Assembly (NCBI GenBank): GCA_027596075.1
Contig: JADGJC010000020.1
Location: forward strand, 124,001-188,000
Reading direction: 5' to 3'
DNA: 64,000 nucleotides
DNA from: Rhizophlyctis rosea
Taxonomy: Eukaryota; Chytridiomycota; Chytridiomycetes; Rhizophlyctidales; Rhizophlyctidaceae
Both the position numbers and the translations under genes were made by a program. Shown one piece after another: positions 3,351-59,447 of the stretch. Below the pieces are notes generated by a model. That model did not search any database and was not told the DNA's origin. It worked only from the letters and a program-made list of their open reading frames with translations. Within the stretch, counting starts at the first letter, position 1. The number at the start of each line of letters is the position of its first letter.

Positions 3351-3713
3351 TTCCGCGACATTTCAAGACTACAACCACTTCGACATGTGTCAGTGGGAAG
3401 TATCTTCGGTCTTTCTCGTTCACAAGTCAGCCGAAACCGGTACTGAAGCACTTCCATTCAGATAAGCACGAGGTCTTCACTCAAGGTAATGCTTTGCCAT
3501 ACTTTTCGCCATTCTGCATTCAAGTTACTAACTCTGGGGAACGCGGAGTATCACTCTCCGCGTTCCTTTGCAAGCAGGTTACCGGTCAAGGTCGTGTCTC
3601 GGTCGTGTTTCGCTCCGCACAAGGGCGCTCCTCTCCCTTCGGGGTTTGGTTTCACTACGGTGCACAAGTCCATGAACTATTGCCTTAGGTTCAATATACC
3701 ATGGCATTGTGCA

Positions 3714-3992
3714 ACAACCTGCGGCTCTATGGGCGGGGGGATTCGCGATAGGCGGTACCGACAACCTTTAGCTCTATGGGCGGGGGGACGGGAAACCGAA
3801 CTGGATCTTATAGCTCGCATACCCGGCGTGGCTATGGGTGGCCGCTTTTTTCTGCACTCCCAACAACCTTTAGCTCTATGGGCGGGGGGATGGGAGTGTT
3901 TCAAGCCCGACAACCTTTAGCTCTATGGGCGGGGGGACGGGTGGTACTTTTCTTCTTCCTCTCGACAACCTTTAGCTCTATGGGCGGGGGGA
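3714..3992 (+). repeat. hairpin-repeat array A: five 28-nt cores with variable complementary arms
   Basis: Five copies of a 28-nt core (ACAACCTTTAGC... CTATGGGCGGGGGGA) start at 3714, 3761, 3863, 3910 and 3965, at uneven spacing (47, 102, 47, 55). The flanks differ between copies but pair with each other: CACTCCCA at 3855-3862 with TGGGAGTG at 3891-3898; GCCCG at 3905-3909 with CGGGT at 3938-3942; CTCG at 3961-3964 with CGAG at 3993-3996. Copy 2 pairs weakly and copy 1 has no clear arms. Inside the core GCTC can pair with GGGC around TAT. The TAGCTCTATGG part resembles a Pol III A box, and a tRNA-like sequence follows at 4015. Confidence 0.85.
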
Positions 3993-4014
3993 CGAGGGGG
4001 TTTGGCCTGGCCCT

Positions 4015-4082
4015 GCTCCTGTAGCTCAATGGTCGAGCACCTGCTTCGGTAGGAGATGCTGGTTCGAATCCGGCCTGGGGTA
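4015..4082 (+). other. tRNA-like sequence (tRNA pseudogene or SINE head)
   Basis: It has an A-box-like TAGCTCAATGG and a B box GGTTCGAATCC. It folds into a D arm (GCTC/GAGC), a T arm (GCTGG/CCGGC around TTCGAAT) and an acceptor stem with one mismatch (GCTCCTG with CTGGGGT). The stretch between D and T arms is only 19 nt, about three short of a normal tRNA, and the anticodon stem has mismatches. It is not a standard functional tRNA. It directly follows hairpin array A. Confidence 0.65.
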
Positions 4083-4089
4083 GTAATTA

Positions 4090-14174: not shown

Positions 14175-14242
14175 CTCCCTCTAGCTCAAGCAGAGCGCCT
14201 GTCGGCCGACAGGAGATACTGGTTCAAGTCCAGCGAGGAAGT
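14175..14242 (+). other. tRNA-like sequence with palindromic anticodon arm
   Basis: An A-box-like TAGCTCAAGCAG and a B box GGTTCAAGTCC are 38 nt apart. The acceptor CTCCCTC pairs with GAGGAAG at six of seven positions, the D arm is GCTC/GAGC and the T arm nearly pairs. In place of an anticodon arm there is a perfect 16-nt palindrome, CCTGTCGGCCGACAGG (14198-14213), which leaves no usable seven-base loop. It looks like a tRNA-derived head of a repeat rather than a tRNA gene. Array B begins about 100 bp downstream. Confidence 0.6.
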
Positions 14243-14344
14243 TTTCTACCCCGGCGACACGAAGAAGATAGCGAAGATTTGCCCGACATCGGTTGGGTAC
14301 GGCCAGAACGACTGGGCAGGACCGACAACAGCAAGAAGGAAAAT

Positions 14345-14870
14345 CTTCACAGCCTTGCACTTTTGTGCCTGGTGAGGGGGTTCGAGCCGCACAGCCTTGT
14401 ACTTCTGTGCTTGGTGAGCGGACAGCTGCGACTTCGAAACCAACTAAAACAAAAGCGGTCCGACAGCCTTACACCTTGGTGCTTGGTGACGGGACACCAT
14501 CGACTTCGACAACAACAAGAAGGAAACCTTCACAGCCTGGTACCTAGGTGTTTGGTGAGGGGGTCGAGCCGCACAGCCTTGTACTTAGGTGCCTGGTGAG
14601 CGGATCAGCTGCATCGCCGACACCGACTACGGCCCGACAGCCTTGCACTTAGGTGCTTGGTGACGGGACACCTTCAACTTCGACAACGACAAGAAAGAAA
14701 CCTTCACAGCCTTGTACTTAGGTGCCTGGTGAGGGGGTCGAGCCGCACAGCCTTTTACTTAGGTGCCTGGTGAGCGGACAGCTGCATCTTCAACACCGAG
14801 TACAGCACAGCGGCCTGACAGCCTCGCACCTTGGTGCTTGGTGACGGGACACCTGCAACGTCAACAATAG
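14345..14870 (+). repeat. hairpin-repeat array B: nine units in three higher-order triplets
   Basis: The core, approximately CAGCCTTGTACTTAGGTGC followed by YTGGTGA, recurs near 14350, 14391, 14464, 14534, 14572, 14638, 14708, 14749 and 14819. Units come in three types that repeat in order, giving a 174-184 nt higher-order period. The outer arms differ by type but pair: CTTCAC with GTGAGG, CCGC with GCGG, and GTCCG or CCCG with CGGGAC or CGGG. The inner stem also varies while staying palindromic (GCAC/GTGC, CACC/GGTG, ACC/GGT). Non-coding. Confidence 0.85.
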
Positions 14871-15230: not shown

Positions 15231-15335
15231 CATTGGAGGTGGCCCGGTTGGGTCTGCCTCCCCTGTTTTTAATGCCGCTACACCAGTCCAAAGCCTGGGG
15301 TTCCGCTCTCGAGTGGAAAAGCGCAGATGGGAAAC
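15231..15335 (+). repeat. dispersed ~110-bp repeat, copy 1
   Basis: Closely matches the reverse complement of 36332-36448: shared blocks include CATTGGAGGTGG, TCTGCCTCCCC, GTTTTTAATGCCGCT, CCAGTCCAAAGCCTGGGG and GCAGATGGGAAAC. It contains a hairpin (GGAGG with CCTCC, enclosing CCC with GGG). It lies downstream of hairpin array B. Confidence 0.85.
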
Positions 15336-15870
15336 AGTGCTCCAATAAACTATACATAATCTACACATCATTGTACCAACAGTGGTCCTTCGTCGTGGTT
15401 ACTATTGGCAGTCTCAAACGAGGGAGTATCCACCCTGACGAGTTTAAAGTCATTCACAGGATGAACAGCTGCCATCTCAGTAGCAGAGCCACGTAACTTT
15501 CCGAATCCTTGCGATCAATTATCCAACCCTTATGATTTATGAGGATTTTTCCCTGCGCATTCTGTTTCATGGTCTCGCGTTCCTCAAGTGTGAACCTAGA
15601 CGGCAACGGTGTCCACAATTGATTTACAATTAAGCAAACTACTCACGTACACTTTACGAGGAAAAGAGGACATGGGGTTTGGATTTTTGACAGAATGAAA
15701 CAAAAACCAACTACCCTCGCCGACTACTGCTACACGATATACCGAAAAATCATACAACGCCAACCCAGAAAAAAAAAAAGTAACCAAAAAATACTATCTG
15801 GATGGAAAAAAGTCCTCGCGAAAACACACAACTGAAGAGGATACTGCCGGTACGGAGTTTTGGAGATTGC
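15336..15870. other. intergenic / 3' flank
   Basis: I recognise nothing coding. It probably includes the 3' UTR of the minus-strand gene ending at 15873. Confidence 0.5.
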
Positions 15871-36331: not shown

Positions 36332-36448
36332 GTTTCCCATCTGCACTATCTTCTCCCCCTCTCGGGATCATCGAAAACCCCAGGCTTTGGACTGGCGAAG
36401 CGGCATTAAAAACTGGGGAGGCAGAACCAACTAGGCCCACCTCCAATG
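36332..36448 (-). repeat. dispersed ~110-bp repeat, copy 2 (inverted)
   Basis: Reverse complement closely matches 15231-15335 (shared GTTTTTAATGCCGCT and CCAGTCCAAAGCCTGGGG blocks). It sits just upstream of hairpin array C. If this locus is flipped, the order array then repeat is the same as at 14.3-15.3 kb. Confidence 0.85.
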
Positions 36449-36578
36449 ATTATTCCCTTCTAGGGTTACCACGCACTATGTCGGTTGCACAAACACACAG
36501 CCATCTTCAAGGAGAAGTCGTTCGAGGAGGTGTCTTGCCCATCACCGTGCTGTAAACAGACACCGGCAACAGGGGGTC

Positions 36579-37347
36579 AAGGCCCACTTACGCTTAAGCC
36601 GGAGCCCATCATCCCCTTGCGAGTGGTCCAAGATGCGTCCAGGATGTTGCTGTTGGAAGCCTCCGCCGAAGCTGCCAGTTAAAGTCGCCGCCGACAAGAA
36701 GGCCGAAAGGGAGGTGTCTTGCCTGTTGCCGAGCTTAAAAGCCACAGCTCCAGGGTGGTCAGGACTCACTTACGCTTAAGCCGGGGTCCATCACTCCACT
36801 TGCGTAAAACCGTTTGCACCGGAAGCGTTCCACTTGACGTTGAAGTTGTGAAAAACCCACTTACATCCATAAGGACGGGGTTTTCCCTTTTCCCCGGAAT
36901 GGGAAGCGTGTCTTGCCATTTCCCCAAATGGGAAGCGTCCGTACGTCCGTGTTGAAGTTGTGAAAAAACCCACTTACAACCTTAAGGACGGGGTTTTCTC
37001 CTTTTCCCTCGGATGGGAACGCTGGTGTTGATGTTGTGAAAAGCTCACTTACAACCTTAAGGACGGGGCTTTTCCTTTTCCCTCGTTAGGAAGCGTCCGA
37101 TGTCTTGTTTTCATTTCCCCCGTGGGAAGCGTCCAAGAAACCTTGAAGTTGTGTTCCCTCGTATCGGAATAGTCCGTAGTTGATGTTGAAAAGACTCGCT
37201 TACACCACAAGGAGGGGGTCTTTCTTTTCCCTCATGGGAAGCGTTCAACTGACGCACGTACACCTTGAGGACGGCGCCGGTTGAGGTCTTGCCAATCGTA
37301 GTAGGTAGAGAGGATCAGGTCGCGCTTACACCCTGAGGATGGCGACC
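36579..37347 (+). repeat. hairpin-repeat array C: about eight cores with covarying arms
   Basis: Units carry a core near ACTTACAACCTTAAGGACG. The arms differ between units but pair: AAAACCC 36852-36858 with GGGTTTT 36878-36884; the same at 36965-36971/36991-36997; GAAAAGCTC 37038-37046 with GGGCTTTTC 37066-37074; AAAGACTC 37190-37197 with GGGTCTTT 37216-37223; ACTGACGC 37248-37255 with GCGCCGGT 37274-37281 (one mismatch); GGTCGC 37318-37323 with GCGACC 37342-37347. Two variant units at 36579 and 36762 have GCTTAAGC in place of CCTTAAGG, so the inner palindrome also covaries. Spacers carry a recurring GGGAAGCGT. Confidence 0.85.
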
Positions 37348-37747
37348 ATTATGCCTTGTTCTTGAGAGCCCGTAGTTGTGAGTGTGCGCTTGTCTGAAGT
37401 TGTCGCGGAAGGTAGGATCTTGTATCGGCCGTCGAGAAGAAAGACAATGTTATGGGACTTGGATATCCTCGAAGTTGTGAAGGGGCGAGTTATGTGAGGG
37501 GTGGAGTATTCTGTGTCAATGAAGCCGAGAATTAACCTGTTAGCGAGAAGTGCGGAGGGAAAGAAAAGGAGTATCCAAATAGTGACACGACACATACCTG
37601 TGTACTGACGGCGAAATGTCCGACATTTCCGAAGTTGAGAAGTGGGAAACCGACGATGAGGGGGTGCGTGGGAAAGAGCGCAGAGGAAGACAGAGGATGA
37701 GAATCGCTGAATGAGAAAATATGGAGGACGGTGCACCGTCTTGGCAC
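37326..37747 (-). pseudogene. possible gene fragment running into array C
   Basis: A frame from ATG 37747 contains HPLIVGFPLLNFGNVGHFAV; then, after a likely intron near 37540-37600, LILGFIDTEYSTPHITRPF and FLLDGRYKILPSATT. The FGNVGHFAV segment faintly recalls the GNVGQLAIDLLI motif of proteasome assembly chaperone 2. The splice phases do not fit cleanly, and the 3' end (37326-37347) overlaps the last hairpin unit of array C. This could be a gene truncated by the repeat or chance coding-like sequence. Confidence 0.25.
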
Positions 37748-59362: not shown

Positions 59363-59447
59363 TCCGGCCACCCGGAGTCGAACCGGGGACCCACAGATCG
59401 CTTGGTGCACTACAGTCTGTTGCTCTACCAACTGAGCTATGGCCGGA
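59363..59447 (-). tRNA. tRNA-Tyr (anticodon GTA) with 11-nt intron
   Basis: Acceptor stem TCCGGCC pairs perfectly with GGCCGGA, D arm GCTC/GAGC, anticodon stem ACAGA/TCTGT with loop CTGTAG+A, T arm CCCGG/CCGGG around TTCGACT. The anticodon GTA is followed, one base later, by an 11-nt intron (TGCACCAAGCG), the canonical position 37/38 for tRNA-Tyr in eukaryotes. A and B boxes are intact. Confidence 0.96.

What the first reader, a model, noticed from the sequence alone, without database searches (positions are those of the whole stretch)
36579..37347. Hairpin repeats whose arms covary while the core stays constant (array C)
About eight units share a ~19-nt core (near ACTTACAACCTTAAGGACG), but the flanking arms are different sequences in each unit and still base-pair: AAAACCC/GGGTTTT, GAAAAGCTC/GGGCTTTTC, AAAGACTC/GGGTCTTT, GGTCGC/GCGACC. 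The inner palindrome also changes on both sides together (CCTTAAGG versus GCTTAAGC). Ordinary tandem duplication would copy the arms too. Compensatory change points either to selection on an RNA or DNA hairpin or to a mobile element that captures or builds complementary flanks when it inserts. The pattern recalls the double-hairpin elements of some chytrid mitochondrial genomes, but this is nuclear DNA with a different layout. I know no described match.
Basis: seen in the sequence. Interest (0 to 1): 0.85.

Follow-up and report, generated by a model that had tools for sequence, protein, structure and literature searches.

The report
Covarying RNA hairpin chain beside ribozyme
A chain of eight small hairpins, whose paired arms change together while the middle stays alike, looks like part of an undescribed non-coding RNA gene that may end in a self-cutting twister ribozyme, in what is probably a swimming-spore fungus.

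Summary
Array C has eight hairpin units with a similar core and different, still complementary arms. In seven units the true arm partners give 41 of 42 pairs, matched by 2 of 5,040 permutations; over six units the covariation score was reached by 0 of 500 shuffles. Core-pattern and DNA searches hit only this array, and u3-u5 share linkers: tandem duplication with compensatory change, not captured flanks.

New here: about 165 nt beyond u1, on the minus strand (36412-36333), lies a twister-like ribozyme (24.3 bits, below Rfam's cut-off). Its subclass pattern has 21 matches in the genome. In 10 aligned members P1 covaries and a pseudoknot pairing is kept in 10 of 10, in two versions. Array B has the same subclass downstream. 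Arrays A and D end at tRNA-like elements.

Best reading: array C is the hairpin chain of a non-coding RNA read on minus, its 3' end cut by the twister. Strand is the weak point: folding evidence is split, four units each way, and one arm pair is U·G on plus but C·A on minus in three units. Transcription and cleavage are untested. I propose a multivalent protein-binding scaffold as function.

The parts
36577..36613 (-). hairpin unit u1 (last before the ribozyme if read on minus; strand not settled); arms imperfect, inner GCTTAAGC
   Evidence: not found by model R1
36757..36795 (-). hairpin unit u2; arms GGACTC/GGGTCC (plus-strand letters), inner GCTTAAGC
   Evidence: (model R1, E 0.0018)
36849..36889 (-). 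hairpin unit u3; arms AAAACCC/GGGTTTT; on minus a hairpin with a 5-nt bulge UAAGU (z -3.27)
36961..37002 (-). hairpin unit u4; arms AAAACCC/GGGTTTT
37037..37077 (-). hairpin unit u5; arms GAAAAGCTC/GGGCTTTTC
37187..37227 (-). hairpin unit u6; arms AAAGACTC/GGGTCTTT
37245..37285 (-). hairpin unit u7; arms AACTGACGC/GCGCCGGTT (one mismatch)
37314..37353 (-). hairpin unit u8; arms GGTCGC/GCGACC; on minus a hairpin with a 5-nt bulge UAAGC
36889..37242 (.). second hairpin type between the units: TTCCC/GGGAA-like stems at 36889-36907, 36919-36936, 37004-37020, 37114-37130, 37226-37242 and TGTTCC/GGAATA at 37152-37172; here the stem is mostly kept and the loop varies
36333..36412 (-). twister-like (type P1) ribozyme; expected cut between U36408 and A36407, placed by homology only
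   Evidence: E 0.87; E 0.047; 24.3 bits, Rfam cut-off 67.2
36413..36448 (-). stretch directly upstream of the ribozyme, shared with the array B locus (34-nt alignment, 88%)
37511..37597 (-). possible intron upstream of the array (GTATGT ... CTAAC ... ACACAG), read by eye; no transcript evidence
   Evidence: sequence
14341..14867 (+). array B (related locus): nine hairpins, core ACAGCCT..GGTGA, three arm types in a 174-bp higher-order repeat
14175..14242 (+). tRNA-like element before array B, aberrant anticodon; ARAGORN only, not among the Rfam hits
15260..15340 (+). twister-like ribozyme after array B, same subclass as the one beside array C (30.8 bits, E 0.012)
3708..4003 (+). array A (related design): five hairpins, core ACAACCT..GGGGGGA, covarying arms
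4014..4083 (+). tRNA-like element after array A

Best explanation
Array C is the repeated hairpin section of a non-coding RNA gene read on the minus strand. The transcript starts upstream (above about 37.6 kb, perhaps with one intron), runs through hairpins u8 to u1 and their linkers, and ends at a twister-like ribozyme that would cut near 36408 and leave the hairpin chain with a ribozyme-made 3' end. The array grew by tandem duplication; the arms then drifted, and compensatory change kept the hairpins closed while the core was held more closely. Shown: compensatory arms, a covarying twister-like fold, and their closeness at two loci (B and C). Inferred: one transcript, its strand, self-cleavage, and function. 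For function I propose a multivalent scaffold: each hairpin presents a similar internal motif (on minus UAAGU, UAAGC or UACGU beside the outer stem) to one protein, so that the arms need only to pair.
For: Arm covariation in C. Twister-like fold: weak Rfam hits; over 10 aligned members, 5 of 12 counted pairs with double changes and covariation score 0.246 against 0.122 shuffled, 0 of 500; RNAalifold 10 of 24 pairs with double changes; pseudoknot pairing CCA/UGG in 5 and CAC/GUG in 5 of 10. Closeness: 2 of 2 subclass-pattern sites on contig C113 lie within about 0.5 kb of a hairpin array (noticed after the fact). Next to the ribozyme B and C share 34 nt upstream; L026 and L027 share a 251-column stretch ending about 40 nt before it; downstream only four weak matches (E 0.08 to 0.57), none beside the ribozyme (7 loci). 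Summed unit energy -94.4 on minus against -82.1 kcal/mol on plus, 8 units. CAAC against its reverse complement GTTG in 1 kb upstream of the ribozyme: C minus 16 to 5, L026 14 to 4, L027 14 to 6. No long open frame: 12-18 stops per frame over 36401-37700, longest open stretch 124 codons.
Against: Strand: outer-arm pair 10/32 of alignment A1 is U·G on plus in three units and C·A on minus. RNAalifold on plus is slightly better and keeps an inner stem (-8.34, 10 pairs) while on minus it keeps only the outer part (-7.57, 8 pairs). By single-unit energy four units favour minus (u1, u3, u4, u8) and four plus (u2, u5, u6, u7). The whole array is equal (-248.3 and -248.4), and shuffle z-scores hardly differ; 1 of 8 minus units is below -3. 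The bulged inner stem is the best fold only in u3 and u8 on minus. Ribozyme: 24.3 bits against a cut-off of 67.2; the number of further pair types does not exceed shuffles (7 against 7.8). CAAC is not clearly enriched in B (9 to 7), L028, L029 or L030. Array C's core is in no other twister locus held (26 sources). No RNA data.
Confidence: 0.52

Rival explanations
1. Array C is a structured RNA of the plus strand; the twister belongs to another, antisense or divergent transcript.
For: U·G rather than C·A at one arm pair in three units; RNAalifold slightly better on plus, with an inner stem CTT/AAG (against 73); u2, u5, u6 and u7 fold better on plus.
Against: Summed unit energy is better on minus; in array B the twister lies downstream on the strand of the array's tRNA-like element; no Rfam match of E up to 10 on the plus strand at 35.9-39.4 kb.
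Confidence: 0.25
2. The twister serves the RNA downstream of it, for example as the 5' end of a retroelement, and the array upstream is unrelated.
For: Ribozymes at the 5' ends of retroelements are known; a passage of PMC7761336 mentions truncated twisters in RTE elements, as work in preparation.
Against: Downstream of the ribozyme no conserved stretch among 7 loci, upstream conserved in two pairs of loci. Reverse-transcriptase genes were not searched for.
Confidence: 0.1
3. The hairpins act as DNA (cruciform or paired binding sites), or each is a mobile insert.
For: Complementary arms can also serve DNA-binding dimers (general knowledge).
Against: Searches hit only this array; linkers duplicated with u3-u5. 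Wobble pairs occur on either strand reading, which DNA does not explain, but they are few.
Confidence: 0.08
4. Decaying tandem repeat without function; complementarity left over from a palindromic origin.
For: Several units fold only slightly better than shuffles on either strand.
Against: At five of eight arm pairs some unit differs on both sides and still pairs; the true partners are best or equal best of all permutations; the same pattern appears in arrays A and B.
Confidence: 0.05

Closest known systems
Twister ribozyme, type P1 (Rfam RF03160)
   Same: UAAUGCCGC in most members, CCAGUC..AAGCCUGG loop, P1 stem, and a pairing between L4 and the 3' strand that covaries.
   Different: A stem of the Rfam model after GCCGC is missing and a variable hairpin is inserted after P4 (alignment); scores of 24-32 bits against a cut-off of 67.2.
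MALAT1/NEAT1-type long RNAs with a tRNA-like transcript at the 3' end (RNase P processing recalled; PMC9777231 seen as start of abstract)
   Same: Arrays A and D end at a tRNA-like element.
   Different: Hairpin arrays in a probably fungal genome; RNase P processing not tested; array C itself has a twister-like site instead.
Double-hairpin elements of mitochondrial genomes (recalled; listing only)
   Same: Small hairpins with recurring sequence.
   Different: Nuclear contig, one locus, tandem with shared linkers, arms covary.
Retrozymes (PMC4918200, start of abstract)
   Same: Self-cleaving ribozyme motif in a non-coding stretch.
   Different: No dispersed copies of array C found; terminal repeats were not looked for; hammerhead there, twister-like here.

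Membership tests
Twister ribozyme type P1 (RF03160) | Rfam gathering score of 67.2 bits | tested here: not met
   24.3 bits for the site beside C, 30.8 beside B. I therefore call it twister-like.
Twister ribozyme type P1 (RF03160) | P1, P2, P4 stems with the conserved L1 and L4 letters | tested here: met
   Alignment A3, 10 sequences; the 3' end of L028 is badly aligned there
Twister ribozyme type P1 (RF03160) | Double pseudoknot | tested here: inconclusive
   One pairing (L4 with the 3' strand of L1) kept in 10 of 10, as CCA/UGG or CAC/GUG; the other was not tested
Twister ribozyme type P1 (RF03160) | Self-cleavage at the U-A step | not testable with these tools
   Needs in vitro transcription
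Mobile element with captured complementary flanks | Dispersed copies with independent flanks | tested here: not met
   All 5 looser core-pattern hits and the only DNA match lie in this array; the pattern matches 5 of 8 known units, so diverged copies could be missed
Double-hairpin elements | Dispersed mitochondrial double hairpins | tested here: not met
   Nuclear context (Nup85 and ankyrin-repeat frames); single locus
Protein-coding repeat | Open frame through the units | tested here: not met
   12-18 stops in every frame over 36401-37700
Known RNA family in Rfam | Match of the hairpins themselves | tested here: not met
   Only the twister hit between 35.9 and 39.4 kb at E up to 10

The most novel reading that the evidence does not exclude
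This genome carries an undescribed class of non-coding RNA genes built as chains of hairpins with array-specific cores and freely exchanged arms. Each is given a defined 3' end, by a twister ribozyme in one group and by a tRNA-like element in another. If so, twister ribozymes would have a plain host function in a eukaryote: making the 3' ends of structured RNAs.
Probability: 0.38. Interest if true: 0.88.

Novelty: new variant of a known kind. Interest (0 to 1): 0.7.

Why it matters
The natural role of twister and hammerhead ribozymes is called largely speculative in the review of which I saw passages (PMC5408937). A set of 21 subclass-pattern sites, two of which stand beside hairpin-chain loci, gives a concrete test: do they make 3' ends of structured RNAs? 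The arrays are also a natural mutational scan: within one locus the arms are exchanged several times while the core stays alike, which marks the part that matters.

Tried and rejected
Model R1 from u3-u8, searched over 26 sources, found u2-u8 and one chance-level hit (L005, E 6.3); it missed u1. An array detector over contig C113 found 3 links, in D, A and C, and 0 in each of 3 block shuffles; it missed array B, so it is insensitive. A link between array C and the tRNA-like family was sought and not found: C has no tRNA hit and no BLAST match to A, B or D apart from the ribozyme stretch. Array C's GTAAGT (minus) as a real 5' splice site was considered; I saw no branch and acceptor pair within the unit (by eye). 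A hairpin core CCTTTTTGG with changing arms in L016, L026, L027, L029 and L042 has stems of only 3-4 pairs, so no claim is built on it. Fold energy is a poor guide to strand even for the ribozyme: the stretch beside B folds better on the wrong strand (-26.6 against -23.8). A protein search with the window's Nup85 frame found nothing, so the organism could not be named. Papers: searches gave listings with starts of abstracts, and one search found none; passages were seen of PMC7761336, PMC5408937, PMC10085705 and PMC5640933; PMC8216456 was searched for five terms and held none of them. No paper was read whole.

Full report
THE OBSERVATION. Array C was read directly and its units aligned. Eight units share a similar core and differ in arms. 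RNAalifold on the eight units gives 10 pairs, 5 with at least one double change. With u3-u8 and only the outer arms counted, 89.6% of cells pair and the covariation score is 0.650 against 0.199 for shuffles (0 of 500) and 0.208 for the best slid version. An exact permutation of the 3' arms over seven units (u1 left out for its bulge) puts the true pairing at the top: 41 of 42 pairs, mean 31.4, reached by 2 of 5,040; u3 and u4 have the same inner arms, which accounts for a tie, and with u4 dropped the count is 35 of 36, reached by 1 of 720. Relatedness among units is not removed by these tests, and R-scape was not run.

This points to tandem duplication and later compensatory change. The exact core is found twice in the assembly, both times here; a looser pattern gives 5 hits, all here, with 0 for the reversed pattern; that pattern fits 5 of the 8 units. 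The stretch 36800-37360 as DNA matches only itself.

THE NEIGHBOURHOOD. The same window holds array A (3708-4003) and array B (14341-14867), also with kept cores and changing arms. Their true arm partners are best or equal best among permutations: A 26 of 30 pairs in 5 units, 1 in 120; B 36 of 36 in 9 units, fraction 0.0007 of 50,000 shuffles, with only three arm types. Array D lies just outside the window in L016; its best register of nine tried gives 32 of 40, fraction 0.009. ARAGORN gave tRNA-like elements with undefined anticodons next to A, B and D; those of A and D also pass Rfam's tRNA cut-off, that of B does not appear there. Rfam gave weak twister hits next to B (30.8 bits, E 0.012) and C (24.3 bits, E 0.87). 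The two ribozyme regions are 90% identical over 73 bases, on opposite strands of the window.

THE RIBOZYME. Membership by score is not met (cut-off 67.2). Yet a pattern of its conserved letters with up to 2 mismatches finds 21 sites in the genome and 0 for the reversed pattern. Ten members were aligned: eight are among those 21 sites (C, B, L026, L027, L030, L057, L058, L059), and L028 and L029 came from the BLAST; an eleventh, L060, was left out because its 3' part was not fetched. The counted stems hold 93.3% standard pairs, five of six P1 pairs show double changes, and the score of 0.246 is reached by 0 of 500 shuffles, although the number of further pair types is not above shuffles (7 against 7.8) and P2 and P4 show no double change. 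RNAalifold finds 24 pairs, 10 with double changes. The three letters after CCAGT and three letters near the 3' strand are complementary in 10 of 10, as CCA/UGG in five and CAC/GUG in five, which suits the L4-L1 pseudoknot of twister (CCC and GGG stand at these places in the Rfam consensus shown). The genome also holds stronger twisters: 61 scored matches of 3,377 first-look candidates, each at E 7.1e-5 or better, 4 above the cut-off; at the loose setting of that search 10 of 14 control genomes also ring, none above the cut-off.

WHICH WAY IT READS. Of seven loci with long flanks, B and C share 34 nt directly upstream of the ribozyme, and L026 and L027 share a 251-column stretch that ends about 40 nt before it; downstream only four weak matches were found, none beside the ribozyme. 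This suits 3'-end formation of the upstream RNA. On minus, u3 and u8 fold as outer stem, 5-nt bulge (UAAGU, UAAGC), five-pair inner stem and a short loop. The other units do not show that inner stem in their best fold. The sum of unit energies favours minus (-94.4 against -82.1), but four units favour each strand, and the whole array is equal (-248.4 and -248.3). RNAalifold is slightly better on plus (-8.34, against -7.57), and one arm pair is U·G on plus and C·A on minus in three units. Arrays A and D, taken with their tRNA-like elements, fold clearly better on the strand of those elements (A -143.3 against -98.9; D -271.5 against -232.1), B less so (-193.3 against -181.3), but the ribozyme stretch beside B folds better on the wrong strand, so energy is a weak guide. 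The strand of C is not settled; the minus reading rests on the ribozyme.

RELATIVES. A genome search with array D found 20 matches, itself included. A pattern for an intron-like stretch (GTAATG, ACTAA, a GGAACGC/GCGTTCC hairpin, GCAAGCAG) fits A, L032, L033, L034, L037, L041, L042 and L044, and not D or L046: 8 of 10. All ten carry hairpins of one type, three to eight each by pattern, and a tRNA-like end, judged in most by similarity to D's. In 43 hairpins of this type the third base of a three-pair middle stem is C with G in 27 and A with U in 15, with one exception; the first pair of that stem is an A·G mismatch in 8 (counted; the pattern limits the letters but not their combination). L047 and L050 share an 840-column alignment at 72% of another RNA-like stretch ending in a strong twister. 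These are different sequences from array C; the common feature is a design, not shown homology.

THE ORGANISM. The assembly has 44.1 Mb in 634 contigs. IFT57 and a U11 snRNA point to a flagellated eukaryote that keeps the minor spliceosome; a zoosporic fungus is my inference.

MECHANISM. Shown: compensatory hairpins, a covarying twister-like fold, and closeness of both at two loci. Inferred: one minus-strand transcript, cleavage near 36408, and a chain of similar binding motifs for one protein. The comparison with known families comes after: the ribozyme should work like a twister and has most of its marks but fails the Rfam score; the hairpin chain matches no Rfam family. Two surveys of structured RNAs in fungi were searched for twister, ribozyme, chytrid, tandem and tRNA-like: one held none of the terms, the other held only 'ribozyme', for HDV-like and group I ribozymes in the 12 of 31 places shown. 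A search for papers with twister, chytrid and ribozyme found 0. These cover open-licence papers only.

Noticed in passing
window 3400-4085; L016 2800-3515; L032, L033, L034, L037, L041, L042, L044, L046: Dispersed family of RNA-like genes: an intron-like stretch with a GGAACGC..GCGTTCC hairpin (8 of 10 loci), a conserved stretch, three to eight hairpins of one type, and a tRNA-like end.
   Followed up: partly
L036, L038, L043, L045: Loci with the tRNA-like end in which I saw no hairpin array by eye; L036 begins at a contig edge.
   Followed up: no
L047 and L050: Another RNA-like stretch shared by two loci (840-column alignment, 72%), ending in a strong twister match.
   Followed up: partly
L030 700-1500: Repeated exon-like units with hairpins (three copies of 50 nt), separated by intron-like GTAAG..CTGAC..CAG stretches seen by eye, before a twister-like site.
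   Followed up: no
G000 whole genome: Wealth of twister ribozymes: 61 scored matches of 3,377 candidates, 4 above the cut-off, several on C624 and C59.
   Followed up: partly
L005 4316-4449; L008 3934-4151: U11 snRNA (minor spliceosome) and U3 snoRNA genes on the same contig.
   Followed up: no
window 59363-59446 (-): tRNA match of 61.1 bits over 84 bases, longer than the model, possibly with an intron.
   Followed up: no
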